The translations under genes and the position numbers were made by a program. From assembly GCF_007655135.1 (NCBI RefSeq), contig NC_045134.1:18934568-18998567 (forward strand): a stretch of 64,000 nt of DNA, read 5' to 3'. Of the stretch, positions 6,257 to 50,207 are shown piece by piece; within the stretch, counting starts at the first letter, position 1; each line of letters starts with the position of its first letter. Origin of the DNA: Punica granatum (Eukaryota; Streptophyta; Magnoliopsida; Myrtales; Lythraceae). The notes beneath the pieces are model-generated. The model was given only the letters and a program-made list of their open reading frames with translations, was not told where the DNA came from and ran no database searches.

Positions 6257-6266
6257 GAGGGGGAGA
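6255..6266 (+). other. Copia polypurine tract
   Basis: TTGAGGGGGAGA lies directly before the 3' LTR, the usual plus-strand primer position. Confidence 0.85.
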
Positions 6267-13887: not shown

Positions 13888-14766
13888 GGTGTTAATGGTA
13901 TCAGAGCCAAGTGTAGGTGGGGAAGGGATGTATATTCCGTTAAGATGTTCGTGTCCGGTAGAACTCGTAGGTCATAACATCTAGGACCGCCTTCATGGCT
14001 GGTAGAAATTCATGTAGCGTTCTCCCAATAGTGTATTCTTGCATATCCTATACAATGAACTGAAGCTGGTAAGCAGGATAGGAAGGAGGCATAGATCACC
14101 GTCTCTTTAGGTTTCTGGATCCAACCACAATGAACAGATGCTCACAAAAGAAGTAGTGCAATAGGCTCTAATGTCCATCCAGTCGCTCTAATGGACCCTA
14201 CACATTCACCGTTCGTAGGAACCCGGGGGGAAGTCCTAAGGTGTCCCCGTCTTGTAAGTCCCGACGGTTAGGGCAGTTTTCAGGGGAAAAATTGGAACGA
14301 ATCCCGGTAGTGTTATGAACACCGTCTAAGTAGATGGAGGTTATCGACTGGAGTAGAGTTATCCTTTGCATTACCGTTCGTAGAGGTACAGCAGTTGGGG
14401 TATGAATCTATATAGATCTCTCAAAGAGTAAGTGAGTTTTCCGAATTTGTCTTACTACTATTATTGTTAAAACCAGGAACAGCAGTTGGTTAGGGATATG
14501 CTAGAATCTGCAGGGAAACACTGTGTGAGGAATCTGCCGCTCATCCAGGTAAGTCTTAGATCTTGATCTTGAGAGAAGCCGGGTAGGAGTATCTGATACG
14601 GTATAGCATCTCTGAACTACCTCCTAGGCTAATGGTTCTATTTATATCCGTAGAGCTTTCGTCTAGGATGAATATGGAATACCGCAAGGATAGGGAACTG
14701 ATATGCAAAAGTATAGAAAGTCTTGATAAATGTCTGATAGACTGGAAGGTTTATTGCTTTTAAAAT
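13888..14766 (+). promoter_or_regulatory. Pararetroviral leader of component A
   Basis: About 870 bp without a long ORF, nearly identical to 43774-44645 upstream of component B; by eye only about half a dozen differences are visible. It contains several short upstream ORFs, as caulimovirid leaders do. It begins with the primer site and ends at the polyprotein ATG 14767. No promoter lies upstream of it in this copy. Confidence 0.85.
13896..13908 (+). other. Primer binding site, component A
   Basis: TGGTATCAGAGCC is complementary to the 3' end of plant initiator tRNA-Met and marks the start of minus-strand synthesis. The bases to its left match the first primer site of the right-hand copy (43554), and those to its right match the second (43776). 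Confidence 0.9.
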
Positions 14767-17724
14767 ATGGGTCTTTTTAAAAATCTTCCTCCATATGCAT
14801 GCGTAGGTTCTCATCACACAATCGATAATCATTCTATCCACAGAAGAAATACTTTTAAGGATAGAATAAACCAAAAATTAGCTAAATGTAGATCTCAGAT
14901 AGCACTGTCTGTGTCGGGTGTCCCTAGGGAAGACACAGTAGTCAAGAAATTTGAGATAGATAACGATAAGCTTAGGAGTGATTTCCTAGCACCCCATAAT
15001 AACCATAAGAGGAGATGGCTCCATGAGACATTCTCCGAAGAATATACCAAATCTCATATCAGGGTAGAATGGACAGCATTCGTGCTAAAAAACTCCAACA
15101 ATATCCTATTTTGGGATTGGTTTGAAAATCATTTTGCACCTAAAAGAATGGTATGTGTAACTCAGAAAACCATAAAGTGGGATCTTGCAAATGCAGACCC
15201 GGTTGAGTCGACACATCCACCTTTAGGAACCATAAAAATAACCCATCAAAAAGCAGAGGTCAAGGCCTCTCCCTTCAAAGTAAAAGTGGACGATTCACTG
15301 GAACCCAAAGATATTAAAAACATCTTTGAACAAAATAATTTCACAAACCAGTGTCTCCACACCATAGGTTTACAATTGGATAGGATAGAACAAGAAGTCA
15401 CTAAGCCTGTTGTTAACCAGGTAGGGACCTCTAGTCGTTCGAGCCAATTAAAACCTGTACCCATAGAGTCTCTCAAAAAACCTCCTTTTAAACCTCATGA
15501 AATTCCTATCTCTAGGAAACAAGAGTTTAGGCAGGAAATAGAGAGAAGATTGAAATCCATAAATCTCCAGGAAAATTCCCCATCCATAAGCTTGCAAAAA
15601 ATGGTCATCCCGGAAACTCCTCTTTCAGAAAAAGAGCCAGGAACCCCATTAAGAGCAACGAAAATCAAGACACAAGAGTCTGTGGGCTCGAATGTCGTCA
15701 ACGCCATCCATAATTCCGGAGATTTAGAAGCCTTAGTGTGGAAGGAACCCCAAAAACCCTACTACACTACCATAAGTGCACCAGACCTAGTTTTGGAAGA
15801 AAAACCAAACATTGTCCAGAATAGGTATAGTGCCAATGCCATCTATGAGTGGAACATAGACGGGCAGTCTGAATATAACATTCTGAGTGTCTTACAGCAA
15901 ATGACGATGGTGTGAAATGCTTACAAGACCCAGACCCGATTGTCGGACCCATCCATAGCACACATGCTCATAGCAGGGTTCACAGGCCAATTAAAGGGAT
16001 GGTGGGACAACTACCTTTCTCCCTTTCAACAAAATGAAATCCTGACCAGCGTCAAGACAGATGAATCTGGTGAGATCATCTGGGATGCTAACAACGAAGA
16101 CATCCCTGACGCCGTAGCAACTCTAGTCTTTGCCATCTCCCAACATTTCGTAGGAGACCCCTCTCACCTCAAAGATAAAAACCTAGAGCTGCTGTCAAAC
16201 CTAAAATGCAAAAGGCTGTCTGATTTCAGACAGTACAAAGATACCTTTCTCACTAGGGTCATGTCTAGGGAGGATTGTAACCAGCCGTTTTGGAAAGAAA
16301 AATTCTTAGCAGGTCTGCCAACCTTGTTAGGAGAACAAGTCCGAAACGAAATCAAAACCATAAATCATGGCCAGATACCTTACAAAGAACTGAGTTATGG
16401 AGAGCTCATCAGCTTCATCCATAAGGAAGGTATCCAAATGTGTACTCAGCACAGACTCCAAAAACAATTGAAAATAGAGAAGGCCCAGACCAAGAAAGAG
16501 CTTGGCAGCTTCTGCCAACAATTCGATCCCTCTTTCCAGGTCGAGAAAAAGGTCGATAAAACCATAACCTGCAGTGGGGACTGCAGCAGAAAACATAAGC
16601 CCAAACATTTCCATAAAAAATCTAGGATTCCCTCAAAACCACATGTCACTGATAAGGAAAAGAGAAAATCCATCTCCCCCTTTAAGTGTTTCAGGTGCGG
16701 GAAAACTGGCCATACCCAGAGGTATTGTTACCTCAACAAAAAGATTCATCAACTGGCAATTGATGATGACATAAAAGACCAAATCTGCAATCTGTTAACA
16801 GAGTTATCCGACTCTGAAACGGACTTCTCGACTGCCAGCGAGGAGAGTTTGCAGATGGATGAACTTGACTGGTCGACTGATGAACAGTCGTCAGAGTCAA
16901 AATCGATAAATGTCTTAACTAGGGACCAAGAATTCCTGCTTGAGATAGCGGGAGAAATCCAAAACCCTTTGTTAAGAACACAATATCTTGATAAGTTAAA
17001 TCAGGGCACTCTCGAAGGCGAGATCAAAACCCCTAATTATAACTTATCAGAGATCCTCAAAAGGCATGGCAAAAAACGAGCTCACATAACCTCGTTTGAT
17101 GCCCAGAAAGAAATCGATAATCTCAGGAGTGAGCTTGCTTGTATCAAGTTTGAACAGCAGCAGCACTCCACCATAATCGGACGTCTGGAAGAGTTTTTTG
17201 CAGAGGCAGGAAGCTCTAGACAAGTCCTTATGACCCAGGACAAAAACCCAGAGGACACTCTGGCCCTGGACCAACCCAAAAATGACCAGCAGAACGCCTT
17301 AACCATGATAGGAGAACCTTCTCCTAACAGGTGGTTGATCAAAATTAAGCTTGTCATAAACCATAATTTGTTTATTAATGCAACTGCTCTGTTTGACAAA
17401 GGTGCAGACGAAAATTGCATTCGCGAACAACTCATTCCTATCAGATTCTATGAAAAAACAACTGAATCACTTTCTTCGGTCAGTGGTACTAAGCTCGACA
17501 TCCAGCATAAGTTGAGCGAGGTAGAAGTTGAACAAAATAGAGTCCGATACAAAACATCATTCCTCCTAGTAAAAAACCTTCATCATGAGGTCATCCTAGG
17601 AACCCCATTCATCCAGCTTTTAAAACCGTTTCTTGTCACAGCATCTGGCATTGAAACGCACAGGCTTGGAAACAAAATAAAATTCTGTTTTGTCTCTGAC
17701 AAATGCATTTACAAGATAGACTGA
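14767..17724 (+). pseudogene. Component A coat protein/protease polyprotein
   Basis: One reading frame of about 985 codons is split by an in-frame TGA at 15913-15915. The first part (382 codons) contains a segment around N-I-L-F-W-D-W-F near 15097-15122 that is also present in the component B polyprotein. After the stop comes a caulimovirid coat-protein region with G-W-W-D-N-Y-L near 16000, then a basic stretch, a CCHC zinc knuckle at 16687-16728 and an acidic Ser/Glu-rich tail. A retropepsin-like domain covers about 17320-17690. Its active-site triplet reads D-K-G at 17395-17403, whereas component B has D-T-G, so the protease is probably inactive. No movement protein or polymerase domain is present. 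Confidence 0.85.
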
Positions 17725-18092
17725 TGTATTTGGCGCAGGAAATGGCCGTGGAATCTGCTCAAGAGTGGTTACACCATTGGCTGTTAGAACTGTGGCAAGA
17801 CGAAAGTCTTGAGAAAATCCAAAAGGACATACAGGACGGGGAAACAGACTCTATGGATCGTATATTCACTACATACATCCACAAAATCTGTGCCCTCATC
17901 GATCATCCTGTATCCCATGTGTTGTGTGCATATTTTAACAAGCATTGCAAAGAGATCCCTCGATGCAATACAAAACCTTGTTTTCAGCACATCAACTCCA
18001 CTTTAAAAACCCGGGAAGACTATGAGCTATTCATAGGACACCTGGCTTTACAGGCTCCTGTAAGAGTCCATTTAAATATTAATCTGCCATGA
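17703..18092 (+). CDS. Component A small ORF, unknown function
   Basis: An open frame of 129 codons overlaps the end of the polyprotein by 22 bases. An internal ATG near 17742 could also start it. The product is rich in Trp, His and Cys but shows no motif that I recognise. It is followed 10 bases later by the next ORF, an arrangement typical of compact viral genomes. The A' copy keeps only its last 26 bases or so. Confidence 0.5.
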   Translation: MHLQDRLMYLAQEMAVESAQEWLHHWLLELWQDESLEKIQKDIQDGETDSMDRIFTTYIHKICALIDHPVSHVLCAYFNKHCKEIPRCNTKPCFQHINSTLKTREDYELFIGHLALQAPVRVHLNINLP

Positions 18093-18102
18093 CCATTGTT
18101 TC

Positions 18103-19693
18103 ATGTTGTCTACATACAGGAACATGGATCTCCCCTGGTTTGACCAGCACGATAAAAGTTCCTCCTCGAGGAACAAAACCCATAAACATCAGGATCTGCC
18201 TCCAAAAAAGCGATTCTGCATAAAGACCAGCCTCACGGCTTGGCGGCCTGATCACAGGCAACAACTCATCTTGGATGATTTATGGTCTTCCGTAAAAAAT
18301 CCTCAAAAGGGTGAGGAATCCATAAACGCATTGGTTCTCCACATGGAGGAACAAAGCAACAGCAAAGCGTCCTTGCAGCAGGAACTTTGCCTGAAAATCG
18401 ATTCGCTGCAACAAGAGCTATCCCTCCAAAAAGCTCAGACTCAAGCTTTCCTCCAAGACAGGTTAGTAGAGTTCGATAATTTCACAGAGCACTTTGCAGA
18501 AATGCAAAGAGAAAATCATGCTCTATCGAAAAATTGAAAAAGAGCGAAAAAAGGAGAGGTATTCTGGAAAAAGAAAATGAAGGCTTCAAAAAAGAAATAG
18601 ATAGCCTCTGTGCGGAAAGAATAGAAGTCTTAGAGTTTTCTGAGTCCTGCCTCAGAGAAAAAGACGCTCTTGATGATGAAAATAAAAAATTAAAGCAGGA
18701 ATTGGAGTCCATATCAACTCCATCAATGAATCAGTCTGTGGTTCCCCCCATCGGAAACCGGACTGAAAAACTGTTTTGGGAAAAGCCCATTGAAGTAACT
18801 CTCAGTGGCGTCTTCCCCCGAGCAGGAGAAATCCTGTTCCTTTCAAAACTTCCTGAGGATATCGTCTTAAAAATTTCTGAGACAAGTCTCCAGGATTTTA
18901 CTACAACCACCATTTCCTTTTTCAAAAAACTCCTTCATTTCTGTGCATGTTCACAAAAAGGAATTGACGGATGGTTTTGGAATTGGGAAAGAAAAAACCA
19001 TTTTCAAAATGATTTTCCAAAACCCTGTGACCAACACGAGGAAGATGATGATTTTGAAAGAACTGACATCCTACTCATGAACGGTTGCAGGCATATCCTG
19101 GAATTCTCTATCCCCAGGATAAGTTTTTATGTTTTCCCATTAAAAGATAAATTTTATAAACACCATTTCGATTTTTGTGATCTCCTAAAATATGGAGTTC
19201 TCAAATCCATAATTCTGAGACCAGAGGATGAACATCGACCAGAGGACCAGTCTCTTTTTGGAGATAATGCTTGGGGATTAATCAAAAAGTCCCTACATCG
19301 ATCGTCCAGCCTCTTCATCAGCATCGAATCCACTCCACCGGAATGGATCTCCCCCATAAAAGTTCAACTTGCTATCCATTACATTTTTATCTCTCCGGTA
19401 AGTTCGAGGAGCATTCTCACTCCGGAGGTAAAGTTCTGGCCAGCAGATGGACCGATAACCAACCAGATCAGCGACTGGCGAGCCTGGTTCAGGTAAACGA
19501 ATGGCACTGGCGTAAATACCCAGAGCATGTTCTCCAGTTCTCAGGTAACTGCCAAAGAGTTTTCCTGCATATCTCTCTCATCGACTTACCAGCACAACCA
19601 GGGTTCAGCACAAGACATGCTTTCCTGATTGACAGGTTCGAAGAGGAGTTCTTGCTAGAAGCTCAGCGTGATCATCGCCAATACGGCATCTGA
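18103..19693 (+). pseudogene. Component A downstream ORF, coiled coil, broken
   Basis: The first 144 codons (18103-18537) are basic, then strongly coiled-coil (L-Q-Q-E-L repeats); the frame then breaks near 18530. The coiled coil and a globular region rich in Phe and Trp continue at 18534-19496, and the end is read in another frame to 19693. Against the second copy at 41276-42867 the breaks lie at different places. The TGA stop at 19691-19693 is created by the junction with the LTR. The product matches no family I recognise; florendoviruses are reported to carry a second ORF of unknown function. Confidence 0.65.
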
Positions 19694-22600
19694 CTGTTTG
19701 TGCAGTTTTCTTGCAGATCGGGTCGATCCGGGACTCTTTTCGGAAAACGACCACCACAGCCACCTCCAGAGGTGAGTTAGCAGTCGGGAGCCGTTGGCCT
19801 TGCTCAAAAATTCCATCGGGAACCTCCGTGGCAACGTCCGACCCGACTGGTGCCAGACGGGTCCGAATTTCCAGACGTACTCTGTTTTCCGTGAATTTGC
19901 AGGGCTGTACGGGTCGACCCGATAACTCTGGGACCAAACGACCACCACAGTCACCTCCGGGGGTCAGTTAGGAGTCAGGAGCCACTGACCTTGCCTCAAA
20001 ATTCCATCGGGAGCCTCCGTGGCGACGTCCGACCCGACTTGTGCCAGTCGGGTCTGTCCAATATTTCAGCCGGGTCTGTTTGATGCCATTCGGGTCTGTT
20101 CAACGGAAAACAGCTCAAAACCGACCCATCAACGGTCCAACCCGACTCTTGAAGGTCCCATCCCGCATCTCGGGACTAGTTGGAGCTCTCGGGTGACCAG
20201 CGTCCGTCACCGAGCGTCACCGAGCGTAGCCAGTGCTCGTCATCCAGCGCCACCAGCGCCCATCACCAGCACACCCGCGCCCGTCACCGCGCCCACGCAC
20301 CCCGTGCTCGTCATCCAGCGCCACCCGCGCCCGTCACCCTCGCACGCCCGTCTCGTCATCCAGCGCCACCCGCGCCCATCACCAGCACACCCGCGCCCGT
20401 CACCCGCGCACGGCCCGTGCTCGTCATCCAGCGCCACCCGCGCCCTTCACCAGCACACCCGTGCCCGCCACCCGCGCGCACTCCGTGCTCCTCATCCAGC
20501 GCCACCCGCGCCCTTCACCAGCACACCCGTGCCCGTCACCCGCGCACTCCCGTGCTCATCATCCAGCGCCACCCGCGCCCGTCACCCGCGCATCCCTGTG
20601 CTCGTCATCCAGCGCCACCCGCGCCCATCACCAGCACACCCGTGCCGGTCACCCGCGCACGCCCGTGCTCGTCATCCAGCGACACCCGCGCCCATCACCG
20701 CGCCACCCGCGCCCTTCACACAGCACACCCGTGCCCGTCACCCGCGCACGCCCGTGCTCGTCATCCAGCGCCACCCGCGCCCATCACCAGCACACCCGCG
20801 CCCGTCACCCGCACGCCCGTGCTCGTCATCCAGCGCCCACCCGCGCCTCACCAGCACACCCGTGCCCGCCACCCGCCACCGCACCCCCGCTCCCGTGCTC
20901 CTCATCCAGCGCCACCCGCGCCCTTCACCAGCACACCCGTGCCCGTCACCCGCGCACTCCCGTGCTCATCATCCACGCCACCCGCGCCCGTCACCCCCCG
21001 CGCATCCTGTGCTCGTCATCCAGCGCCACCCGCGCCCATCACCAGCACACCCGTGCCGGTCACCCGCGCACGCCCGTGCTCGTCATCCAGCGCCACCCGC
21101 GCCCATCACCAGCACACCCGCGCCGGTCACCCGCGCACGCCCGTGCTCGTCATCCAGCGCCACCCGCGCCCATCACCAGCACACCCGCGCCCGTCACCCG
21201 CGCACGCCCGTGCTCGTCATCCAGCGCCACCCGCCCCTTCACCAGCACACCCACCCGTGCCCGTCACCCGCGCACCCCTGTGCTCGTCATCCAGCGCCAC
21301 CCTCGCCCATCACCAGCACACCCTTGCCGGTCACCCGCGCACGCCCGTGCTCGGCACCAGCGCCACCCGCGCCCCTTCACCAGCCACCCTGCTCATCATC
21401 CAGCGCCACCCGCGGCCCGTCACCCGCGCATCCCTGTGCTCGTCATCCAGCGCCACCACCCGCGCCCATCACCAGCACACCCCGCGCCCGTCACCCGCGC
21501 ACGCCCGTGCTCGTCATCCAGCGCCACCCGCGCCCTTCACCAGCACACCCGTGCCCGCCACCCGCGCACTCCCGTGCTCCTCATCCACACCCGCGCCCTT
21601 CACCAGCACACCCGTGCCCGTCACCCGCGCACTCCGTGCTCATCATCCAGCGCCACCCGCGCCCGTCACCCGCGCATCCCTGTGCTCGTCATCCCGCGCC
21701 ACCCGCGCCCATCACCAGCACACCCGTGCCGGTCACCCGCGCACGCCCGTGCTCGTCATCCAGCGACACCCGCGCCATCACCAGCGCCACCCGCGCCCTT
21801 CACCAGCACACCCGTGCCCGTCACCCCGCACGCCCGTGCTCGTCATCCAGCGCCACCCGCGCGCATCACCAGCACACCCGCGCCCCGTCACCCGCGCCAC
21901 GCCCGTGCTCGTCATCCAGCGCCACCCGCGCCCTTCACCAGCACACCCGTGCCCGCCACCCGCGCACGCCCGTGCTCCTCATCCCGCCACCCCACCCGCG
22001 CTTCACCAGCACACCCTTGCCCGTCACCGCGCCTCCCGTGCTCATCATCCAGCGCCACCCGCGCCCGTCACCCGCGCATCCCTGTGCTCGTCATCCAGCG
22101 CCACCCGCGCCCATCACCAGCACACCCGTGCCGGTCACCCGCGCACGCCCGTGCTGCTCGTCATCCAGCGCCACCCGCGCCCATCACCAGCACACCCGCG
22201 CCGGTCACCCGCTCACGCCCGCCCTTGCTCGTCATCCAGCGCCACCCGCGCCCATCACCCTCACCAGCACACCCGCGCCCGTCACCCGCGCACGCCCGTG
22301 CTCGTCATCCAGCGCCACCCGCGCCCTTCACCAGCACACCCGTGCCCGTCACCGCCCGCACCCCTGTGCTCGTCATCCAGCGCCACCCTCGCCCCTCACC
22401 ACCCTCACACCCTTGCCGTTCACCCGCGCACGCCCGTGCTCGGCACCAGCGCCACCCGCGCCCTCACCAGCACAACCGTGCTCATCATCCAGCGCCACCC
22501 GCGCCCGTCACCCGCGCATCCCTGTGCTCGTCATCCAGCGCCACCCGCGCCCATCACCAGCACACCCGCGCCCGTCACCCGCGCACGCCCCGTGCTCGTC

Positions 22601-25600
22601 ATCCATCCAGCGCCACCCGCGCCCTTCACCAGCACAACACCCGTGCCCCCTCCACCCTTCACTCCCGTCTCCTCATCCAGCGCCACACCCGCGCCCTTCA
22701 CCAGCACACCCGTGCCCGTCACCCCGCACTCCCGTGCTCATCATCCAGCCCGCGCCACCACACACGCCCCGTCACCCGCGCATCCCCTGTGCTCGTCATC
22801 CAGCGCCACCCGCGCCCATCACCAGCACCCCGTGCCGGTCACCCGCGCACGCCCGTGCTCGTCATCCAGCGACCCCGCGCCCATCACCACGCCACCGCCA
22901 CCCTCGCCCTTCACCAGCACACCCTGCCCGTCACCCGCGCACGCCCTGCTCGTCATCCAGCGCCACCCCCGCCCCATCACCAGCACACCCCGCCCGTCAC
23001 CGCTCGCACGCCCGTGCTCGTCATCCAGCGCCACCCGCGCCCTTCACCAGCACACCCGTGCCCGCCACCCCGCGCACTCCCGTGCTCCTCATCCAGCGCC
23101 ACCCCGCCCTTCACCACACCCCGTGCCCTTCACCCGCTCACTCCTTCACCGCTAGCTCCCCTGCTCATCATCCACGCCACCCGCGCCCGTCACCCGCGCA
23201 TCCCTGTGCTCGTCATCCAGCGCCACCCGCGCCCATCACCAGCACACCCGTGCCGTCACCCCGCACGCCCGTGCTCGTCATCCAGCGCCACCCGCGCCCA
23301 TCACCAGCACACCCTCGCCGGTCACCCGCGCACGCCCGTGCTCGTCATCCAGCGCCACCCGCGCCCATCACCAGCACACCCGCGCCCTCACCCGCGCACG
23401 CCCGTGCTCGTCATCCAGCGCCACCCGCGCCCTTCACCAGCACACCCCTGCCCGTCACCCGCGCCACCCTGTGCTCGTCATCCAGCGCCACCCTCGCCCA
23501 TCACCAGCACACCCCTGCCGGTCACCCGCGCACGCCCCGTGCTCGGCACAGCGCCACCCGCCCCTTCACCAGCACACCCCCTGCTCATCATCCAGCGCCA
23601 CCCGCGCCCGTCACCCCGCATCCCTGTGCTCGTCATCCAGCGCCACCCGCGCCCCACCAGCACACACCTGCCGGTCACCCACGCACGCCCGTGCTCGTCA
23701 TCCAGCGCCACCCGCGCCCATCACCAGCACACCCGTGCCGGTCACCCACGCACGCCCGTGCTCGTCATCCAGCGCCACCCCGCGCCCCATCACCAGCACA
23801 CCCGCGCCCGTCACCCGCGCACGCACCGCCCGTGCTCGTCATCCAGCGCCACCCGCGCCCTTCACACCAGCACACCACCCGTTCCCGTCACCCGCGCACC
23901 CTGTCTCGTTCCATCCCCTCCCCCGCGCCCATCACCCCCACACACCCTTGCCGGTCACCCGCGCACGCCCGTGCTCGCACCCAGCGCCACCCGCGCCCTT
24001 CACCAGCACACCCGTGCCCGCCACCCGCGCACGCCACCCCGTGCTCATCATCCAGCGCCACCCGCGCCCTCACACTCACCCAGCACACACCCTGCCCGTC
24101 ACCCTCGCACTCCCGGCTCATCATCCAGCGCCACCCGCGCCCCGTCACCAGCGCACGCCCGCGCCCGTCACCAGCGCACGCCCGCCCGTCACCAGCGCAC
24201 GCCCTCCGCCCGTCATCCGCGCACAGCCCGCGCCTTCCGTGCCCCGCCTCCGCGCCACGTCCCGCGCCCGTCCCCCTCACCCGCACGTCCTTGCCCAACA
24301 CCAGCGCTTGTCAGTGCCCACCAACGCCCGTGCACGTCCACCCTTGCGCCCGAATACCCTTTTAAGGGTTCCACCGAGTCACCCGACTCTCAAACACTTC
24401 CCCGACTCTTTCCTCGTATTCCGAGGCTAGGTAAAACACTTCTGACTTAGAGGAGTTAGGACTTTTTATATTTTGCATGGCTATGGAGTATTATGGTGTT
24501 TCATGCATGTTTCATTTGCAAGATTTAATTTTTATGCAATTTTATGTTATATTATGCATGTACACTATCTTATGACTTGCTACCATGTCGGAAAGAGCTT
24601 GGATCATCATAAAGAAGACTATCCCAACCCGATTATGGCACATTAATTCTCGGCCAACTCTCTAAAGGAGAGGGTTGAGACTTAAATTGCTCTTTTCGGG
24701 TTAAGATCGGTCTCCTTAGCCTATTCAAGTTAATTTCCGAGTTTGTTTTATCATTATTGCATGCATGAAGCCGGTGTTATTTATCCTTTTCCTTATTAAC
24801 ACGTTTGTGAATGTTTGTATGTTTAAATGAGCTAAACAAATCGTGATAACGCCGGCTTTTGTTAAAAAGGAGTGCTATTTATCACGGTTGATGTTTGAGC
24901 ATGCGAGAAATAATTAAACCACGATTAGGAAATCATTCGTGACTCGGATAGAGCCATGAGAACCTTCGGCCACCCTTCACAAGATGAAGCCGAGGGCTTC
25001 TTGGCCTTCCTTGGGTCAAGAATGAGTTCCTTATCTCAAGTTTAATTTGTTGATCGGATGATGTGAAGTTTTACTTCAATGTCTTTACGATTCCCATAAA
25101 ATATCATGTAAAGACTCTTTCAAACGAAGCATGCATGGATTCGAGTATCGATGACTCATTCGGGTCCATTTGGTTATGAGGATAGTTTCGGTCATTAGAC
25201 CAAATTATCCTCGATCCTTATGGAATCGTCTTGGTCGTCGAGTCGCGAATCGTTTTCACAATTAATGCATTCGGCACAACCCTTAAGCATTAATGCCACA
25301 AACTGGTTAATCGGGACGCTCACACGATTAAACTCACTTCACACTAATAAAGTTTACCCGAATTGGACATTAATTGATAACTCGCGTCGACGAGTCGTCA
25401 AAGGACGTTGGTGCCCTTTTCAAACTTATCAATTTCAAAACCCGAAACGCGCGGTCCGATGTAGCATGGACGTCTGGAAAGGGCTTCTGTGTCTCAACTT
25501 GAGTTTTTACCTGATTCTAGGTAACTCAGGTCAAGATACAGAAGATCTTTCTAGATCACTTCCGGGCAGATCGACCGGTTCTTTGGCTTTTTTGGGTTCT

Positions 25601-27133: not shown

Positions 27134-27156
27134 GCTTGGCGACTCCGCTGGGGACA
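27134..27156 (+). other. Ogre-like primer binding site (tRNA-Arg type)
   Basis: TTGGCGACTCCGCTGGGGAC follows the left LTR after two bases. As I recall, this matches the tRNA-Arg primer used by Ogre/Tat elements; it should be compared with plant tRNA 3' ends. Confidence 0.7.
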
Positions 27157-34175: not shown

Positions 34176-34377
34176 TTTAATTGCCCGTTTCAGCTTTGTT
34201 CCGAACTCTACATGTTTATTGTGCACATCTCACCATATTCCCTCTTATTAGGTACAACATCCTACATATCCAAAACAAAAAGGAGAGGGTCATATAGGAA
34301 ATTCCATTTTGATCATTGCTATCAAACTGGGGTGCTTTTGAAATCTTTGATTGCATCCTCTATTCGAGCAAGCAGTC

Positions 34378-34390
34378 AAAGAGGGGCAAG
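34378..34390 (+). other. Ogre-like polypurine tract
   Basis: AAAGAGGGGCAAG lies one base before the LTR start TGTTAGCACC. Confidence 0.8.
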
Positions 34391-34391
34391 C

Positions 34392-40300: not shown

Positions 40301-41237
40301 AATAACAAACACTTTGTCTGTTATTAACCTGTTGCTTGTTATCTTTCTGCACCTGTTTGCCATGCGGGTCGGGCCTGACCCCTAGGCCGAATAATATTAG
40401 GGTTCAACGCCCTAATCATCGAGCACAGGGTCCAACACCCTAATCAACACTCACAGGGTCCAACGCCCTATTCAGTGAGAGCGTTCATTGAATTTCAGTT
40501 CTTCGGTCTTTTCCCTAAACTCACGGTGAGTTAGAGTGGAATAATAACCGAACGCGAAACGACTGGAATTCGACCCTTTTGCAATTTGTATTTATTGTTT
40601 TTGAGAGCATTGTAAGGATTCTATTTGGTGCATTTATTCTGTAAGAATTCCAGTCGGTGAGCGAACGGTCCGAGAGTCGAATTAATCGAATCGGTCTAAT
40701 GCTTGCCCAGACACAAGTGAATCCAAGATATCGCAGTTCTGGTTCACGCAGGGATTCAACCTCCATGGTTCGATGAACTGTAATGCAAGATTGTGAACCA
40801 ATTCCCCGACATATAGATTTACTTCTCTCCCGGCTTCTCAACCGACATCGTTTGGTTCATCGAATATCCGGTGTCAAAACGTGCGAGCCGAGTGCAGCTT
40901 AATTCACGCGGTAAATAATAAAACATGCAAGCCTAGCAAACCAGAGTATCGAAAGGGCGTGCGGGATATAGGCCCGCACGTAACATGAACCCCCGAACAC
41001 GGATTTTCCGGTTCCGCACAGATCAATGCCTTAACAACAAACTAGGTGTTCCATACCCCTAGACCTGGGTAACTTATCCGCCCTCGACCTCCGGGTCGTA
41101 AAATGATAAGTGGCGACTCCTTCTCTCACGCGTGTCCGACGCGCGCCCCCGCGGGAAGATGGACGTTCCGACCAAGCCGCGCGATCCAAAAGCGCGCGAT
41201 GCGGGCCCCGACGAGAGTCAACATTCGGGTCCGTACA
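34392..41237 (+). repeat. 3' LTR of the Ogre-like element, complete
   Basis: It is 6,846 bp long and bounded by TGTTAGCACC and GTCCGTACA. A TATA-like TCTATATATTG lies near 36015, about 1.6 kb into the LTR, followed by a CT-rich stretch, a plausible U3/R border. The minisatellite array is at 37051-38386. The right edge cuts directly into viral component A' at 41238. ORFs across it are not conserved as proteins. Confidence 0.85.
37051..38386. repeat. 67-bp GC-rich minisatellite, short array
   Basis: The same unit as at 20231-24235, here about 1.3 kb and very regular. Its last 150 bases are a higher-frequency sub-repeat of CGCACGCCCGCGCCCGTCA type. Confidence 0.95.
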
Positions 41238-41275
41238 AGTCCATTTAAATATTAATCTGCCATGACCATTGTTTC

Positions 41276-42867
41276 ATGTTGTCTACATACAGGAACATGG
41301 ATCTCCCCTGGTTTGACCAGCACGATAAAAGTTCCTCCTCGAGGAACAAAACCCATAAACATCAGGATCTGCCTCCAAAAAAGCGATTCTGCATAAAGAC
41401 CAGCCTCACGGCTTGGCGGCCTGATCACAGGCAACAACTCATCTTGGATGATTTATGGTCTTCCGTAAAAAATCCTCAAAAGGGTGAGGAATCCATAAAC
41501 GCATTGGTTCTCCACATGGAGGAACAAAGCAACAGCAAAGCGTCCTTGCAGCAGGAACTTTGCCTGAAAATCGATTCGCTGCAACGAGAGCTATCCCTCC
41601 AAAAAGCTCAGACTCAAGCTTTCCTCCAAGACAGGTTAGTAGAGTTCGATAATTTCACAGAGCACTTTGCAGAAATGCAAAGAGAAAATCATGCTCTATC
41701 GAAAAAATTGAAAAAGAGCGAAAAAAGGAGAGGTATTCTGGAAAAAGAAAATGAAGGCTTCAAAAAAGAAATAGATAGCCTCTGTGCGAAAAGAATAGAA
41801 GTCTTAGAGTTTTCTGAGTCCTGCCTCAGAGAAAAAGACGCTCTTGATGATGAAAATAAAAAATTAAAGCAGGAATTGGAGTCCATATCAACTCCATCAA
41901 TGAATCAGTCTGTGGTTCCCCCCATCGGAAACCGGACTGAAAAACTGTTTTGGGAAAAGCCCATTGAAGTAACTCTCAGTGGCGTCTTCCCCGAGCAGGA
42001 GAAATCCTGTTCCTTTCAAAACTTCCTGAGGATATCGTCTTAAAAATTTTTGAGACAAGTCTCCAGGATTTTACTACAACCACCATTTCCTTTTTCAAAA
42101 AACTCCTTCATTTCTGTGCATGTTCACAAAAAGGAATTGACGGATGGTTTTGGAATTGGGAAAGAAAAAACCATTTTCAAAATGATTTTCCAAAACCCTG
42201 TGACCAACACGAGGAAGATGATGATTTTGAAAGAACTGACATCCTACTCATGAACGGTTGCAGGCATATCCTGGAATTCTCTATCCCCAGGATAAGTTTT
42301 TATGTTTTCCCATTAAAAGATAAATTTTATAAACACCATTTCGATTTTTGTGATCTCCTAAAATATGGAGTTCTCAAATCCATAATTCTGAGACCAGAGG
42401 ATGAACATCGACCAGAGTACCAGTCTCTTTTTGGAGATAATGCTTGGGGATTAATCAAAAAGTCCCTACATCGATCGTCCAGCCTCTTCATCAGCATCGA
42501 ATCCACTCCACCGGAATGGATCTCCCCCATAAAAGTTCAACCTGCTATCCATTACATTTTTATCTCTCCGGTAAGTTCGAGGAGCATTCTCACTCCGGAG
42601 GTAAAGTTCTGGCCAGCAGATGGACCGATAACCAACCAGATCAGCGACTGGCGAGCCTGGGTTCAGGTAAACGAATGGCACTGGCGTAAATACCCAGAGC
42701 ATGTTCTCCAGTTCTCAGGTAACTGCCAAAGAGTTTTCCTGCATATCTCTCTCATCGACTTACCAGCACAACCAGGGTTCAGCACAAGACATGCTTTCCT
42801 GATTGACAAGTTCGAAGAGGAGTTCTTGCTAGAAGCTCAGCGTGATCATCGCCAATACGGCATCTAG
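41276..42867 (+). pseudogene. Component A' downstream ORF, coiled coil, broken
   Basis: This is the second copy of the ORF at 18103-19693. It stays open for 255 codons through the basic N-terminus and the whole coiled coil, then shifts frame near 41990 by one base relative to copy 1 and stops at 42043. The Phe/Trp-rich C-terminal part is open again at 42250-42867, ending in TAG. The two copies are broken at different positions, so each decayed separately after integration. Function unknown. Confidence 0.7.
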
Positions 42868-43553
42868 CCACTAACAACCGAGAGCGTCCGCCCACTGTTT
42901 CAGACACGTGGATCATTACCGGACAAAAAACCTTTCGGCTCTACAGGCTATGCCCCGACATAATCAGCGCAATCTCCGGAAGCGTCCTACCACTACTCAC
43001 AGTGGTAGCATAACGGACAAAAAACCTTTCGGCGAGCGTGCCCGACATAAAGCAGCCTCCTGACACCTTTTGCGACAAAAAAGGCACTGTAGCTACAGTT
43101 CTTCCACTGAGCTCGACAGTACCCCGCATGTGAGTGCACAGTGTAAAGCTGCACAGCGACAAGGCATCCACCACTGCCTATAAGTGTGCTCTTCCTCCAG
43201 CATCGAAGGGACACACACCCGCAACACATAATTCACTCTTCCTCTCTTCTTCTCTTCTCTCTTCCCATATGTAAACATCCGGCTCCCATAACCCGGATCC
43301 TCCAACCCCATTTCTGTGTGTAAGTTCCAGTGTAAGCATGGATTGAGTCCTTACAGACTCTTTCCTTTTATTTTAATGTCTTTTCTTTTTGTTTGTTTTA
43401 AACTCATGTACTCCCTTCAGCCCATCATGGGCTAAGTGTTTGAATAAATCTTCCATGTCGATCTCATATTTATCTTGACAGTCTATGCATATCAGATCCA
43501 TGTTCTTCCTGTATTCCATGATTATCTCTTACGTCTAGGTCTCTGGGTGTTAA
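42868..43553 (+). promoter_or_regulatory. Pararetroviral intergenic promoter region (A')
   Basis: No ORF is present here. A TATA-like CTATAAG lies at 43178-43184, so transcription would begin near 43208-43215. AATAAA lies at 43443-43448, downstream of that start, as in caulimovirids that read past their poly(A) site on the first pass. The first 500 bases are nearly identical to 49670-50200 behind component B. The word GGACAAAAAACCTTTCGGC occurs twice (near 42924 and 43016). Confidence 0.75.
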
Positions 43554-43566
43554 TGGTATCAGAGCC
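43554..43566 (+). other. First primer binding site before component B
   Basis: TGGTATCAGAGCC, identical to 43776-43788 and 13896-13908. It is followed by CTATAAAGAG rather than the leader sequence proper. Confidence 0.85.
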
Positions 43567-43775
43567 TATAAAGAGTCCCGATCCTCTCACTCGTGACTCA
43601 ATCACGAAGCGAGGCTCTCCGCAGGGAACGCCCTAGCGGGGTGGCAAACTGATAGGTACCACACGACGTGATACCAGCAATAGTCTGGCAAGAGGTCGTG
43701 CTCTCGAAAAGTTGTAGTGGCTTGAGAGTCCCCGGGTATGCAAAGGCCTTGGGGTTGCAAAGGTGCGTAAATTAA

Positions 43776-43788
43776 TGGTATCAGAGCC
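43776..43788 (+). other. Second primer binding site, component B leader
   Basis: TGGTATCAGAGCC followed by AAGTGTAGG as in copy 1 of component A. It lies 222 bp after the first primer site. Confidence 0.88.
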
Positions 43789-44645
43789 AAGTGTAGGTGG
43801 GGAAGGGATGTATATTCCGTTAAGATGTTCGTGTCCGGTAGAACTCGTAGGTCATAACATCTAGGACCGCCTTCATGGCTGGTAGAAATTCATGTAGCGT
43901 TCTCCCAATAGTGTATTCTTGCATATCCTATACAATGAACTGAAGCTGGTAAGCAGGATAGGAAGGAGGCATAGATCACCGTCTCTTTAGGTTTCTGGAT
44001 CCAACCACAATGAACTGATGCTCACAAAAGAAGTAGTGCAATAGGCTCTAATGTCCATCCAGTCGCTCTAATGGACCCTACACATTCACCGTTCGTAGGA
44101 ACCCGGGGGGAAGTCCTAAGGTGTCCCCGTCTTGTAAGTCCCGACGGTTAGGGCAGTTTTCAGGGGAAAAATTGGAACGAATCCCGGAAGTGTTATGAAC
44201 ACCGTCTAAGTAGATGGAGGTTATCGACTGGAGTAGAGTTATCCTTTGCATTACCGTTCGTAGAGGTACAGCAGTTGGGGTATGAATCTATATAGATCTC
44301 TCAAAGAGTAAGTGAGTTTTCCGAATTTGTCTTACTACTATTATTGTTAAAACCAGGAACAGCAGTTGGTTAGGGATGTGCTAGAATCTGCAGGGAAACA
44401 CTGTGTGAGGAATCTGCCGCTCATCCAGGTAAGTCTTAGATCTTGATCTTGAGAGAAGCCGGGTAGGAGTATCTGATACGGTATAGCATCTCTGAACTAC
44501 CTCCTAGGCTAATGGTTCTATTTATATCCATAGAGCTTTCGTCTAGGATGAATATGGAATACCGCAAGGATAGGGAACTGATATGCAAAAGTATAGAAAG
44601 TCTTGATAAATGTCTGATAGACTGGAAGGTTTATTGTTTTAAAAT
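43789..44645 (+). promoter_or_regulatory. Pararetroviral leader of component B
   Basis: Nearly identical to 13909-14766 of component A up to the start codon, after which the two sequences are unrelated. It carries short upstream ORFs but no long one. Confidence 0.85.
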
Positions 44646-47600
44646 ATGGATTGGTTTAAAGCAAGTTCTTCGAGTACATGTCCTTCTGAAAATAATTTCG
44701 ATAATGATTCTGTTCTCAACAGAGAAGAGGTCAATTTGGAATGTTTTGATAAATCTATCGATGATTGGGAGATCCCAAGAATCGCTTCAAAACAGATTTA
44801 TAAAAACTCAAAATTCCAACAAATTTTCTCAAAAACCGATTACACCATAACAACTGAAGAGCGGGACATCCCCCTAAAAAACTCTTCACAAACCATAAAA
44901 CTCTTGAACCAAGAGTCCCTGAAAAAACATAACGATAAGTACAATTTCATCCATATAGGGCTTGTCCAAGTGGGCATAAAACCCCTGACCAGAGAAGGTT
45001 TAGATACCTCAGTGCTCCTAGTGCTTAGGGATGCTAGGCTTCTAAACTACCATGAATCCATCCTTGGGACGGTAGAGACTAGTCTGTGTGACGGGCCAGT
45101 CCATTTCAACTGTTTCCCAAATTTCACCATGTCCCTAAAAGACCAAAACATAGCTCATGGCTTGACCCTGCAAATCAAAACGCACAATTACAAGATTGCT
45201 TTAGGCTCAATCCCTTTAGCCCTTGTGTACAGAGTCCATTACAAAACGATGGTCTCAGCGTTTGCAACCAAAGCCTTCAACCATAGTCCCAAAGGAGAAA
45301 CCCTCCTTTTCCAAACTGATATTGCTAGGTCAAACACTGTAGTCCCTAGACCAATTAGGTGGAACGAGGTAACTCTTCCTGAAGAATGGGTCTTAGAAGA
45401 CGCAGTTGCCCCTGAAAAAATTCAAAATGAGGAACTTAGTCGAGTGAGCCAGTTCCAAGATGGGAGAGTTTCCATAAGCTTTCACCATAGGAGATCAGTC
45501 GACATACAGTCAACCTCAACCCCTTCGATAAATTCTTCCTTTAGAAGCCCTGAGCTTAGAAGGAGATCATTTAGTGTTGCCCCATCGGCAAACACTTTCC
45601 AAACAGCTACTGAAAACTCTCCTAGGACTGCCAACCTTAGAGGAATAAGTAGTGTCGCCACCGATATCCCTAGACCAGTGTACTCTGCCCCCATCACAGA
45701 TGAAACTGAGTCTTCGCCACCTTCACCCACATTCTCATCCATAACCGATGCAACCAGAATCAATCCTAACCCTGAGATTTATGTTATTGAGAAATCATTT
45801 TCAATAGCCTCAGCCATCCTTAGGAATGACTTCTGCTCCAAAGAAAATGAAAAAAGAAAAAACTGGTTGTATGATGTCTTTACAAAAAAATACGTAGAGA
45901 TCATAATGCAAAACAGTTGGATCCACTGGATGAATGAAAATGGGAAAAACATCCTTTTCTGGGATTGGTTCTACCAATTCTTCATGGAAGAAAAGGCTCT
46001 CAAATTCACTGAAAATACCATAACATGGAAACTACCTTTTAACAAAACCGTAGTCTCCTCAAAACCACCTCCAAAATATGTTGAGCCAAAAGAACCTGAG
46101 CAAACCAAAAACCTTAGGTTACTCAACATGATGATCAGGAATACCCGCGCCTTAGAGCATGAAAACTGGGAAAAAGAAAGACTACAAGCAGAGTTAAAAC
46201 TTCGCCAAAAACTCAATGAGCTCCATAAAGAAGTAATAACTCTGAAAACCGATGAAAAGCTGGTTCAGGCAATGGACAGTGCTGAACCCAAACCTGAGTG
46301 TAAAAGCCAGGAATTCACCCATCAGAAATACCTCCTAAAACCTACAATCAAGGTGAACGACTTTCAAGTGGAAGTAACTGCCCTGTTGGATACAGGTGCA
46401 GACGCCAATTGTGTGAGGGAGGGAATAATCCCTAAAAAATACTGCAAATTGACCAATGAATCTTTACGTTCTGCTAGCAACAATAAATTGAAAATCACTC
46501 ATAAAATTGCAGAAGCAGAAGTTAAAAATGAAGATTCAACATACAAAACTGGTTTCCTAGTCGTCCAAGACTTAAAAAATGAAGTCATACTAGGAACCCC
46601 ATTCATTCAGCTCATTAAACCCTTCCTTTTCACCAATTCAGGCATAAAAACGGTGTATTTAGGAAGCAAAACCCTTTTCCCTTTCATAACAAAACCTGTA
46701 ACCAGGAATCTGGACATGATACAGGCTGCTGAGAGGCAAATAGGCTGGGTAAAAGATGAGATATCTCACCATAATGTTGAAAATCTGCTCCAAAAACCAA
46801 ATTGGAAACAAAAAATCGATAATCTCGACAGACTGATTCAGGAGTCAGTTTGCGGAGAAACCCCAAACGCTTTCTGGGATAGGAAGCAACATGTCATCGA
46901 CTTACCTTATGAAAAGGATTTCGATGAGAAAAATATCCCAACAAAAGCCAGACCCATTCAGATGAATCAAGAGTTAGAAAGACACTGCAAATTAGAAATC
47001 CAAGACCTCTTGAACAAAAAATTGATTAGGCCTAGTAAGTCTCCCTGGAGTTGTTCAGCCCTCTACGTGAACAAAAACGCTGAGCTTGAAAGATGAGTCC
47101 CCAGGTTAGTAATCAATTACAAGCCCTTGAACCAAGCCTTACGGTGGATTAGGTACCCGATACCTAACAAAAAAGATTTGCTCCAAAGACTTCATGATTC
47201 AAAAATATTTTCAAAATTCGACATGAAGTCAGGCTTTTGGCAAATTCAAATCGCCGAAAAGGACAAATACAAAACTGCATTCACAGTTCCGTTTGGCCAG
47301 TACGAATGGAATGTAATGCCATTTGGGCTCAAAAATGCCCCATCTGAATTTCAGAAAATCATGAATGACATCTTTGGTGAATACTCCGATTTCATAATTG
47401 TATACATCGATGATGTTCTCATATTTTCCAAAACCCCTGATTCTCATTTCAGACATCTGAAGCATTTTATGAGAGTCACCGCGATAAATGGTTGGACTGT
47501 GTCTCCGACTAAAGTCTGCCTCTTTCAAACCAAAATCCGATTCCTAGGGCACAACATCAGCAGGGGCACCATAATCCCCATTAACCGGTCCATCCAGTTT

Positions 47601-48227
47601 GCTGATAGGTTCCCTGATCAAATCCATGATAAAAAACAGCTACAAAGGTTCTTAGGGAGTCTAAACTACGTTGTAGATTTCTTCCCTGGCCTAAGTAAGC
47701 TTTGCAAACCCCTCCATAACAGGTTAAAGAATTCTCCTCCACCATGGACGGATGAACAAACCAAAATTGTGAAGCAAATCAAGCTTCAAATCAAAACTCT
47801 GCCTTGTTTGCACCTGGCAGACCCATCTGCAAAAAAGATTGTTGAAACAGACGCCTCTGAAGAAGGATACGGAGGAATCTTGAAACAATCCAAAAATGGA
47901 CATGAACAAGTTGTTCAGTTCACATCAAAACACTGGAACCCTAACCAGAAGAATTACTCAACAATAAAAAAGGAAATTCTTTCTGTGGTCCTTTGCATTT
48001 CTAAATTTCAATCTGATCTTTTAAACCAAAGGTTTTTACTTCGGATTGATTGCAAATCTGCAAAAGAGGTTCTTCAAAAAGATGTTCAAAACATTGCATC
48101 AAAACAGATTTTTGCCCGTTGGCAAGCTATCTTGAGTGTATTTGATTTTGACATCGAATTCATAAAAGGTGAGACTAATAGTCTCCCTGACTTCCTGACA
48201 AGAGAATTCCTGCAGGTACCAACATGA
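44646..48227 (+). pseudogene. Component B polyprotein (MP-PR-RT-RH)
   Basis: One frame of about 1,190 codons is interrupted by a single in-frame TGA at 47094-47096, within the N-terminal part of the reverse transcriptase. A 30K-type movement protein covers roughly residues 95-260 (P-L-T-R-E-G-L-D near 44985). The F-W-D-W-F segment shared with component A is near residue 435. The aspartic protease has D-T-G-A at 46389-46400 and a second motif V-I-L-G-T-P-F. Reverse transcriptase has Y-I-D-D near 47403-47414, and RNase H has T-D-A-S-E near 47848. No zinc knuckle or coat-protein region is seen. Because of the stop it is scored as a pseudogene, although the rest is well preserved. Confidence 0.9.
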
Positions 48228-49660
48228 GCATGAGGACTCGTTCCTCGAAAAAAGAGGCTGCGGCCTCAAAACAGCTGGCTCCCAGCCAGTCGATAAAAAA
48301 TGAGGAGCAATCCTCGCACCATAAGGCCTCTGGCCAACCCTCCATTGGACAGATCACCGTTGATAGCCAGATAAAAACCTATCGACAGACTCTCCAACAG
48401 GAGATCGATAAGCAGAGCTGCATGCAGACTCTGCCAGGTAATCCTAAACCCAAAAAGGAGAAACAAACTCTTGCAAAACAGAGTTCTTCTTCCCTCGATA
48501 ACGATGATGTAGTCCAGCAATGGATTACTGTGTTGAAAGATAAACCAGAAATAGCACAAGTGCTATCTGGGATATCTCCTCCCCAGCTGGAGACTAGCAA
48601 GGGAGAGAGCTCTAGGCAAGTCGCCAATAGAGCAGAAAAAAGTCTCACCACATTTTCCGATAAGGAAACCAGCTCTTCAAAAACAGCACCATGGTTTCCA
48701 AAATCATTATTTCAAACTGTTTTGATTATGGAAGAAGGTTTTTACCATGAAAACCCCTTCTTCGCGGCATCAAAATTGTTTCCCGAAAACTGGTATTTCC
48801 GGCCGTTTGACATTTCAAAAACCCGGGGATATTATGAGAAAATTTTGAGTGATACAGGTTCAGTTGAGTTCAAACACCACCTCGTCCCTGGCTCCTCAAA
48901 CACCATATCCCACTCTACAGCCAAAATACTCAGAGTGATCCACCCGAGAGAATGGAATGAGGGAAAACCATACCAAATCCATAAATTCCAAGCCCGGTTC
49001 TCGTCTGATCTCCCCCATAATGCCATGTATTCCTACTGGGATTACCAGCAAGCTTGGTATAATGCATTTTTGTACCAAAACCATGAGTTCAGACACACTT
49101 GGCTGATCTTTTTCCATTCCAAAGATATAGCCATATTTCCCTTTTGGTTCGCCCACTGGTGGTCTATCTGGGGTCCTATTCCAGACATACTGCCTCCCAT
49201 AATCCATGAAGCCTACACCATGTTCGCTTCCCGATTCAAACCTCAAGGGAATCAAAACATTTTCCCCGTGCTTTTCCATTTCTACCATATTTTTGGATTA
49301 TCATGGGTTCATAATTGGTCTTTCGGATACAAGCCTGATCAACAGACAGGCCTGCAGACACTGGCCAGAATCTTCAAATGCAAATGGTGGGTTAAGCTGA
49401 AGGTAGATCATCTTGACTCCCAATTTGTTCTCAGTTGGTTCCGTAAAAATGCTCTTGTCTCAGACAAAGCACAAGTGGACCACCAAAGCTTTCTCCAGGT
49501 CAAAGCCCGCGCTTCGTCCTTCCTCTCAGCAGCAAAAACTGATGAGGATTACATAGGGCGACTCAGTCAGGTCCTCCTGGAGCTCAAAGAATTGAACACT
49601 GCTTCGTCTGCATCAGAGTCCCACAGGGATCACGGCGACAGTGATTTCTCATCAGAATGA
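48224..49660 (+). CDS. Component B ORF2, intact, unknown function
   Basis: An uninterrupted ORF of 478 codons starts in the overlap ATGA with the polyprotein stop, which suggests coupled termination and re-initiation. The first 140 residues are polar and basic with S-S-K-K, probably disordered. The central part is very rich in aromatic residues (W-Y-F-R-P-F, F-W-F-A-H-W-W). The tail is Ser/Asp-rich. I recognise no domain and no signal peptide. It lies where florendoviruses are described to have a second ORF of unknown function. It occupies the same relative position as the coiled-coil ORF of component A, but I see no clear similarity between them. Confidence 0.75.
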   Translation: MSMRTRSSKKEAAASKQLAPSQSIKNEEQSSHHKASGQPSIGQITVDSQIKTYRQTLQQEIDKQSCMQTLPGNPKPKKEKQTLAKQSSSSLDNDDVVQQWITVLKDKPEIAQVLSGISPPQLETSKGESSRQVANRAEKSLTTFSDKETSSSKTAPWFPKSLFQTVLIMEEGFYHENPFFAASKLFPENWYFRPFDISKTRGYYEKILSDTGSVEFKHHLVPGSSNTISHSTAKILRVIHPREWNEGKPYQIHKFQARFSSDLPHNAMYSYWDYQQAWYNAFLYQNHEFRHTWLIFFHSKDIAIFPFWFAHWWSIWGPIPDILPPIIHEAYTMFASRFKPQGNQNIFPVLFHFYHIFGLSWVHNWSFGYKPDQQTGLQTLARIFKCKWWVKLKVDHLDSQFVLSWFRKNALVSDKAQVDHQSFLQVKARASSFLSAAKTDEDYIGRLSQVLLELKELNTASSASESHRDHGDSDFSSE

Positions 49661-50207
49661 TTGCTAGCCCCAGCAACCGAGAGCGTCCGCCCACTGTTTC
49701 AGACACGTGGATCATTACCGGACAAAAAACCTTTCGGCTCAAAAGGCTATGCCCCGACATAACCAGCGCAATCTCCGGAAGCGTCCCACCACTACTCACA
49801 GTGGTACCATAACGGACAAAAAACCTTTCGGCGAGCGTGCCCGACATAAAGCAGCCTCCTGTCACCTTTTGCGACAAAAAAGGCACTGTAGCTACAGTTC
49901 TTCCACTGAGCTCGACAGTACCCCGCATGTGAGTGCACAGTGTAAAGCTGCACAGCGACAAGGCATCCACCACTGCCTATAAGAGTGCTCTTCCTCCAGC
50001 ATCGGGGGGGGGGGGGGGGGGGGGGGACACACACCCGCAACACATAATTCACTCTTCCTCTCTTCTTCTCTTCTCTCTTCCCATATGTAAACATCCGGCT
50101 CCCATAACCCGGATCCTCCAACCCCATTTCTGTGTGTAAGTTCCAGTGTAAGCATGGATTGAGTCCTTACAGACTCTTTCCTTTTATTTTAATGTCTTTT
50201 CTTTTAT
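49661..50207 (+). promoter_or_regulatory. Pararetroviral intergenic promoter region (B)
   Basis: A close copy of 42868-43390 with TATA-like CTATAAG at 49977-49983. A run of 23 G lies at 50004-50026, where A' has a short CGAAGGG. It ends where host sequence begins, upstream of the region matching the poly(A) signal and primer sites. Confidence 0.8.

What the first reader, a model, noticed from the sequence alone, without database searches (positions are those of the whole stretch)
13888..50207. Both components of a bipartite endogenous pararetrovirus in one locus
Two viral genome types share a nearly identical leader (13909-14766 and 43789-44645) and 3' promoter region (42868-43390 and 49670-50200) but have complementary coding content. 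A has the coat-protein and zinc-knuckle region and no polymerase; B has movement protein, RT and RNase H and no coat protein. Shared non-coding ends with different coding regions are the hallmark of multipartite genomes, which is exceptional among reverse-transcribing viruses; bipartite florendoviruses have been proposed. Here A' and B are physically joined head to tail.
Basis: partly seen in the sequence, partly recalled or inferred. Interest (0 to 1): 0.9.

Follow-up and report, generated by a model that had tools for sequence, protein, structure and literature searches.

The report
Two-part fossil plant virus, one locus
A plant chromosome carries, side by side, decayed copies of two different DNA molecules of an ancient reverse-transcribing plant virus, one with the coat-protein domain and one with the movement and copying enzymes, sharing nearly identical control regions: a known but rare kind of divided virus, split here in a way not seen in the papers read.

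Summary
Two caulimovirid elements share a near-identical non-coding region (leader 868/874 aligned bases, 3' region 510/523) that stops at the coding borders. A has coat-protein, zinc-knuckle and protease domains, no detected MP, RT or RNase H; B has MP, protease, RT and RNase H, no detected coat domain. Their overlapping coding parts are only anciently related: protease 57% nt, dN 0.51, dS 1.56; DUF7588 32% aa. That argues strongly against recent deletion of one genome and fits two co-replicating components whose control region recombination keeps alike. Bipartite florendoviruses and compound A+B loci were published in 2014 (PMC4241990). New here: MP only on the RT component, and a deeply split shared protease under a near-identical control region.

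The parts
13868..13881 (.). TA tract just left of element A
   Evidence: junction sequence
13888..14766 (+). Element A: tRNA-Met-type primer-binding site (13896) and leader with many short upstream ORFs
14767..15915 (+). Element A ORF1, first piece (ends at an in-frame stop): DUF7588 (14965-15141), start of DUF7746
15916..17724 (+). Element A ORF1, second piece: rest of DUF7746, caulimovirus coat-protein domain (16168-16476), CCHC zinc knuckle (about 16684-16728), retropepsin (17335-17625) with an altered catalytic motif
17700..19690 (+). Element A downstream ORF(s) in three pieces and two frames (17700-18092, 18076-18537, 18480-19496); no Pfam family reaches its cut-off
19691..41237 (+). Nested LTR element that splits A: LTRs 19691-27133 and 36512-41237, GC-rich tandem repeats, internal DUF7745/PMD ORF; flanks GCATC | AGTCC, no target-site duplication
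41238..42867 (+). A': second copy of A positions 18065-19690, its downstream ORF broken elsewhere than in A
42868..43568 (+). A' 3' non-coding region: B-like to about 43390, AATAAA at 43443, left arm of the leader pairing 43442-43551, primer-binding site 43554
43569..43771 (.). 203 bp of unknown origin between A' and B
43772..44645 (+). Element B: primer-binding site (43776) and leader
44646..47096 (+). Element B ORF1, first piece (ends at an in-frame stop): MP (44772-45257), DUF7588 (45816-45977), retropepsin (46347-46619)
47097..48227 (+). Element B ORF1, second piece: RT with YIDD (47103-47558), RNase H (47745-48038)
48224..49660 (+). Element B ORF2, 478 aa, 55.3 kDa, start overlaps the stop of ORF1; no Pfam match at E up to 1
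49661..50207 (+). Element B 3' non-coding region, ends before the AATAAA and pairing arm seen in A'

Best explanation
The locus is a compound insertion of both genome components of a two-component plant pararetrovirus (Caulimoviridae, florendovirus-like), later split by an LTR element. Element B (MP-DUF7588-PR-RT-RH plus ORF2) supplied movement and reverse transcription. Element A (DUF7588-DUF7746-CP-zinc knuckle-PR plus a further ORF) supplied the coat protein. Both RNAs carried the same primer site and leader, so B's enzyme could copy both and A's coat could package both (inferred). Recombination in the shared non-coding region kept it nearly identical while the coding parts drifted far apart (divergence shown, cause inferred). 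A's left end, the right end of A' and B's left end lie at primer-binding sites, as expected for linear DNA opened at the minus-strand gap (positions shown, mechanism recalled and inferred); A's left flank is TA-rich.
For: Near-identical leader and 3' region with codon-sharp borders. Complementary domains: no MP, RT or RNase H family in the A pieces and no coat family in the B pieces at E up to 1; tblastx between the coding spans links only DUF7588 and protease beyond weak matches (best 25 rows). Shared coding stretches only anciently related, with fewer replacement than silent changes (protease dN 0.51, dS 1.56, 130 codons; DUF7588 dN 0.77, silent sites saturated, 107 codons). Long open frames: 602, 816 and 478 codons against maxima of 166, 180 and 265 in 100 dinucleotide shuffles each. 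Sequence upstream of the A' primer site pairs with the leader ends of both A and B (87 bp, -97.0 and -97.7 kcal/mol; z -7.3 and -7.5 against 200 dinucleotide shuffles each; two control stretches z 1.2 and 0.9). Three of four ends (A left, A' right, B left; not B right) lie at primer-binding sites. RT piece matches PDB chain 8r0s 'Enzymatic polyprotein' (1.3e-85) ahead of Ty3 (7q5b, 1.3e-60).
Against: One locus only: no second B copy and only part of a second A copy, so neither deletion in these particular copies nor a helper relation is excluded. Each ORF1 holds an in-frame stop, A's protease motif is altered, and the downstream ORFs of A and B show no detectable kinship, whereas the published components share ORF2 homologues. 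In the published cases the coat-protein component carries MP; here it does not. The RT tree was not possible. A pairwise dN/dS cannot show that both lines were constrained. No (TA)5 tract lies near B's right end.
Confidence: 0.68

Rival explanations
1. A and B descend from two different monopartite viruses in one plant. One took over the other's control region, and A and B are deletion derivatives or a helper-dependent satellite rather than obligate partners.
For: Protease and DUF7588 are as far apart as those of different species might be. A recent exchange of one contiguous control region (leader and 3' region adjoin in a circle) would give the same picture. Geering et al. say that helper dependence cannot be discounted for their viruses.
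Against: Needs two independent deletions that happen to be complementary plus control-region exchange; the homology borders coincide with the coding borders, and in both elements ORF1 is followed by a further ORF.
Confidence: 0.22
2. A and B are recent internal-deletion products of one monopartite virus.
For: Together they hold the usual florendovirus domain set (PMC4241990).
Against: The shared protease is 57% identical in nucleotides (its best blastn stretch 72% over 112 bases) while the non-coding region is above 97%; simple deletion would leave both equally alike.
Confidence: 0.03
3. The likeness of leaders and 3' regions arose after integration, by gene conversion or unequal exchange within the locus, between unrelated insertions.
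For: The locus has recombined (LTR element without target-site duplication, 1.63-kb repeat).
Against: Conversion needs prior likeness; leader and 3' region differ by unequal amounts (6 of 874; 13 of 523 plus 24 gap columns); the leader tract starts at the primer site and both tracts stop at coding borders.
Confidence: 0.05
4. The arrangement is partly an assembly error across the LTR element (can hold together with any of the above).
For: No target-site duplication and a 1.63-kb overlap at the LTR element.
Against: It would affect only the link between A and A'; the A'-B stretch does not involve the LTR element, and A and A' differ by 6 substitutions and 3 gaps.
Confidence: 0.1

Closest known systems
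Bipartite endogenous florendoviruses (Vitis vinifera B and D viruses, Oryza sativa B virus, Sorghum bicolor virus; Geering et al. 2014, PMC4241990)
   Same: Two components sharing a near-identical intergenic region; RT component without coat protein and with an ORF2 after ORF1; coat-protein component with protease and no RT; components of 5.5-6.9 kb (here A about 6.5 kb by adding 5795 and 689, B at least 6.4 kb); compound A+B loci; TA repeats at the integration site.
   Different: There the coat-protein component carries MP (MPs of the two components more than 87% nt identical); here MP is only on the RT component. Here the shared protease is 57% nt identical. The downstream ORFs of A and B are not recognisably related.
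Monopartite florendoviruses (e.g. Lotus japonicus A virus)
   Same: The same domain set over the two elements together, and an ORF2 of 45-58 kDa in another frame (B ORF2 55.3 kDa).
   Different: Neither element here carries the whole set.
Petuvirus (Petunia vein clearing virus)
   Same: One large polyprotein with MP and RT.
   Different: No ORF2 and MP, CP, AP, RT and RH1 in one polyprotein, according to Geering et al..

Membership tests
Caulimoviridae | RT-RNase H of caulimovirid type, without integrase | tested here: met
   RT and RNase H by Pfam; best PDB match 8r0s 'Enzymatic polyprotein', 1.3e-85; no integrase family listed for the B pieces at E up to 1
Caulimoviridae | 30K movement protein and caulimovirid coat domain | tested here: met
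   MP PF01107 in B, PF22909 in A; on different elements
Caulimoviridae | tRNA-Met primer-binding site | tested here: met
   TGGTATCAGAGC at 13896, 43554 and 43776, the only three in the window, both strands searched; that these letters are the tRNA-Met site is recalled
Florendovirus (proposed genus) | Monophyletic in AP-RT-RH1 trees | not testable with these tools
   No reference RT sequences reachable: not run; searches gave no relatives
Florendovirus (proposed genus) | ORF2 of 45-58 kDa after ORF1 in another frame, specific to the genus | tested here: inconclusive
   B ORF2 fits in place, frame and size; homology to known ORF2s could not be tested
Florendovirus (proposed genus) | Integration beside TA repeats (a tendency, not a rule) | tested here: met
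   TA tract 13868-13881 six bases from A's left end; none near B's right end
Bipartite florendovirus | Components share a near-identical intergenic region | tested here: met
Bipartite florendovirus | RT component lacks coat protein; coat component lacks RT | tested here: met
   in the single copies available
Bipartite florendovirus | Coat-protein component carries MP | tested here: not met
   No MP family in the A pieces, only weak tblastx matches to B's MP stretch (E 3.0, opposite strand); only 67 residues precede DUF7588 in A's first ORF1 piece
Bipartite florendovirus | ORF2 homologue on both components | tested here: inconclusive
   A and B both have a downstream ORF, but BLASTP and phmmer find no kinship
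Bipartite florendovirus | Many independent copies of each component in the host | not tested
   The genome search did not complete

The most novel reading that the evidence does not exclude
This is a long-established, obligately two-component reverse-transcribing virus: two molecules that parted so long ago that their shared coding stretches are near or at saturation at silent sites, yet whose control region was continually homogenised, with movement/replication on one and capsid on the other, a partition not reported for bipartite florendoviruses in the papers read.
Probability: 0.45. Interest if true: 0.75.

Novelty: new variant of a known kind. Interest (0 to 1): 0.55.

Why it matters
Divided genomes are common among plant RNA viruses but, in the papers read, are claimed among reverse-transcribing viruses only for fossil florendoviruses, where dependence on a helper could not be discounted. 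A pair whose coding parts are anciently separated under a near-identical control region is the pattern expected of a stable two-part virus, and it makes the question testable by counting A, B and intact monopartite copies in the host genome.

Tried and rejected
Single-sequence AlphaFold models of B ORF2 and of the larger A' downstream ORF piece (mean pLDDT 37.9 and 38.1) are too poor to use; no fold search was made. Relatives in IMG/VR: RT piece, coat piece, B ORF2, MP-protease piece and one degenerate RT pattern, no relatives. Prokaryote genome contigs with the RT piece: none. Rfam: nothing at gathering score. NCBIfam: one protease match below its cut-off. PDB search with the coat piece: seven weak zinc-knuckle matches, E 0.17 or worse. 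A simple insertion of the LTR element into one A copy was considered and rejected for want of a target-site duplication. A-A' divergence (6 of 1625) against LTR divergence (26 of 3046, two stretches chosen outside the tandem repeats) is suggestive but not significant (p 0.063). Papers: PMC4241990 abstract, sections 6, 12 (part 1 of 2) and 24, and passages; PMC5766536, PMC10377300, PMC9719215 and PMC10747563 passages; PMC13308828 abstract and passages; all others as search listings only.
Full report
WHAT IS THERE. The window is plant nuclear DNA: a Copia-type reverse transcriptase lies at 5040-5600 and an NB-ARC domain at 57932-58381 on the minus strand, among TIR- and LRR-like frames at 55504-59293 read by eye. 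The TIR type points to a eudicot (recalled); the species was not determined. With gap columns set aside these are 868 of 874 and 510 of 523 identical, with 1 and 24 gap columns. The 5' homology runs to within five codons of the start codons at 14767 and 44646; the 3' homology starts at or just after the stops at 42865-42867 and 49658-49660. The likeness is therefore essentially confined to the non-coding region.

DOMAINS. Pfam on pieces split at stops: A has DUF7588, DUF7746, the caulimovirus coat domain (E 5.2e-18), a zinc knuckle below Pfam's cut-off (E 0.031) but with a CCHC motif, and a retropepsin (6.6e-8). B has MP (3.8e-23), a DUF7588 match just under its cut-off (25.6 of 27 bits), a retropepsin (3.5e-7), RT (3.2e-34) and RNase H (2.5e-26). 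The RT piece is closest in the PDB to 8r0s, 'Enzymatic polyprotein' (1.3e-85), then 4ol8 (8.4e-61) and Ty3 7q5b (1.3e-60). tblastx between the two coding spans (the best 25 rows were printed) finds DUF7588 (107 aa, 32%) and protease (116 aa, 52%), echoes of these in other frames, and otherwise weak matches of 6-46 residues; the unlinked ones have E 0.23 or worse. Some of these weak ones touch B's MP, RT or RNase H stretch, none A's coat domain. I read this as: A has no recognisable relative of B's MP, RT or RNase H, and B none of A's coat domain. B's ORF2 (478 aa, 55.3 kDa) starts inside the stop of ORF1. A's downstream ORF lies in three pieces in A and two in A', broken at different places in the two copies; A with A' and B show no kinship there.

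THE TEST BETWEEN DELETION AND OLD PARTNERSHIP. If A and B were recent deletion products of one genome, their shared coding parts would be as alike as their ends. They are not: protease 48% identical over 131 aa, 56.7% in nucleotides, pS 0.656, pN 0.370, dS 1.56, dN 0.51 over 130 codons (best blastn stretch there 72% over 112 bases); DUF7588 32% over 107 aa, 45.8% in nucleotides, silent sites saturated, dN 0.77 over 107 codons. Fewer replacement than silent changes means that the path between them was mostly under constraint; a single pair cannot show this for each line apart. Beside this the control region is 97.5-99.3% identical, not far from two copies of the same element (A against A': 6 substitutions in 1625). 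Recombination in the control region, recent or continual, is the simplest cause. This contradicts simple deletion; it does not by itself tell an obligate partnership from two viruses, one of which took over the other's control region.

CONTROL REGION. A tRNA-Met-type primer site occurs three times in the window: 13896, 43554 and 43776. The leader holds 19 AUGs in each element. The stretch left of the A' primer site (43442-43551) pairs with the leader end just before ORF1 of both A (14643-14756) and B (44523-44636): 87 bp, -97.0 and -97.7 kcal/mol, against -56.4 (sd 5.6) and -55.1 (sd 5.6) in 200 dinucleotide shuffles each; two other 167-base stretches give -46.1 each, z 1.2 and 0.9. A long leader hairpin, as used by known plant pararetroviruses for ribosome shunting (recalled), is the likely role; here it would enclose the primer site. 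An AATAAA lies at 43443; no TATA[AT]A was found in either 3' region. B's copy ends before this part.

JUNCTIONS. A begins a few bases left of its primer site, six bases from a TA tract (13868-13881). A' ends at its primer site, B begins at its own; B's right end does not lie at one. Ends at the primer site fit linear DNA opened at the minus-strand gap of caulimovirid DNA (recalled and inferred). Between A' and B lie 203 bp (43569-43771, GC 0.55) without notable similarity elsewhere in the window and without an Rfam match; they remain unexplained.

THE NESTED ELEMENT. A is cut at 19690 by an LTR element (LTRs 19691-27133 and 36512-41237, TG...CA, GC-rich tandem repeats of about 67 bases, one internal ORF with DUF7745 and plant mobile domain; 6 of the 13 internal ORFs of at least 120 aa were scanned). 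Left and right flanks (GCATC, AGTCC) do not form a target-site duplication, and the right flank starts at the equivalent of A position 18065, so 1.63 kb of A stands on both sides. Exchange between two LTR insertions, either in two tandem A copies or in two haplotypes of one A copy, would explain this; misassembly is not excluded.

KNOWN OR NEW. Geering et al. 2014 (PMC4241990; abstract, named sections and passages) described bipartite florendoviruses in grape, rice and sorghum: an RT component without coat protein, and a component with MP, coat protein and protease without RT; intergenic regions more than 90% and MP more than 87% alike; compound A+B loci; helper dependence not discounted. PMC10377300 adds sugar beet (passage). 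PMC13308828 (2026) holds neither 'bipartite' nor 'multipartite' in its main text. The locus is thus of a known kind. It differs in that MP lies only on the RT component, the shared coding stretches are anciently diverged, and the downstream ORFs are not recognisably related. The paper searches made showed no report of this partition in what was read; most listed papers were seen only as listings, and subscription journals are largely not held.

LIMITS. One copy of B, one and a part of A. Host genome search unreachable in seven tries, protein database off, no relatives in the collections scanned. Hence no copy census and no RT tree; the genus stays 'florendovirus-like'.

Noticed in passing
19691-41237: Large LTR element with very long LTRs of unequal length (about 7.4 and 4.7 kb) filled with GC-rich 67-base tandem repeats and an internal DUF7745/plant-mobile-domain ORF; no RT in the 6 of 13 internal ORFs scanned; no target-site duplication and a 1.63-kb repeat of A on both sides.
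   Followed up: partly
43569-43771: 203 bp of unknown origin between two primer-binding sites.
   Followed up: partly
17335-17625: Element A's protease has an altered catalytic motif where B's is canonical: decay, or a protease that relied on B's.
   Followed up: no
41249-42040: Downstream ORF of A and A' contains a long coiled-coil-like stretch (read by eye).
   Followed up: no
55504-59293: Frames of a TIR-NB-ARC-LRR resistance-type gene on the minus strand (NB-ARC by Pfam, TIR and LRR by eye), with a 304-bp inverted self-match at 95% identity at 58671-58974.
   Followed up: no
837-6480: Copia-type retrotransposon (RVT_2 at 5040-5600) with a 0.2-kb direct repeat at 837-1036 and 6277-6480 (93%), perhaps its LTRs.
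   Followed up: no
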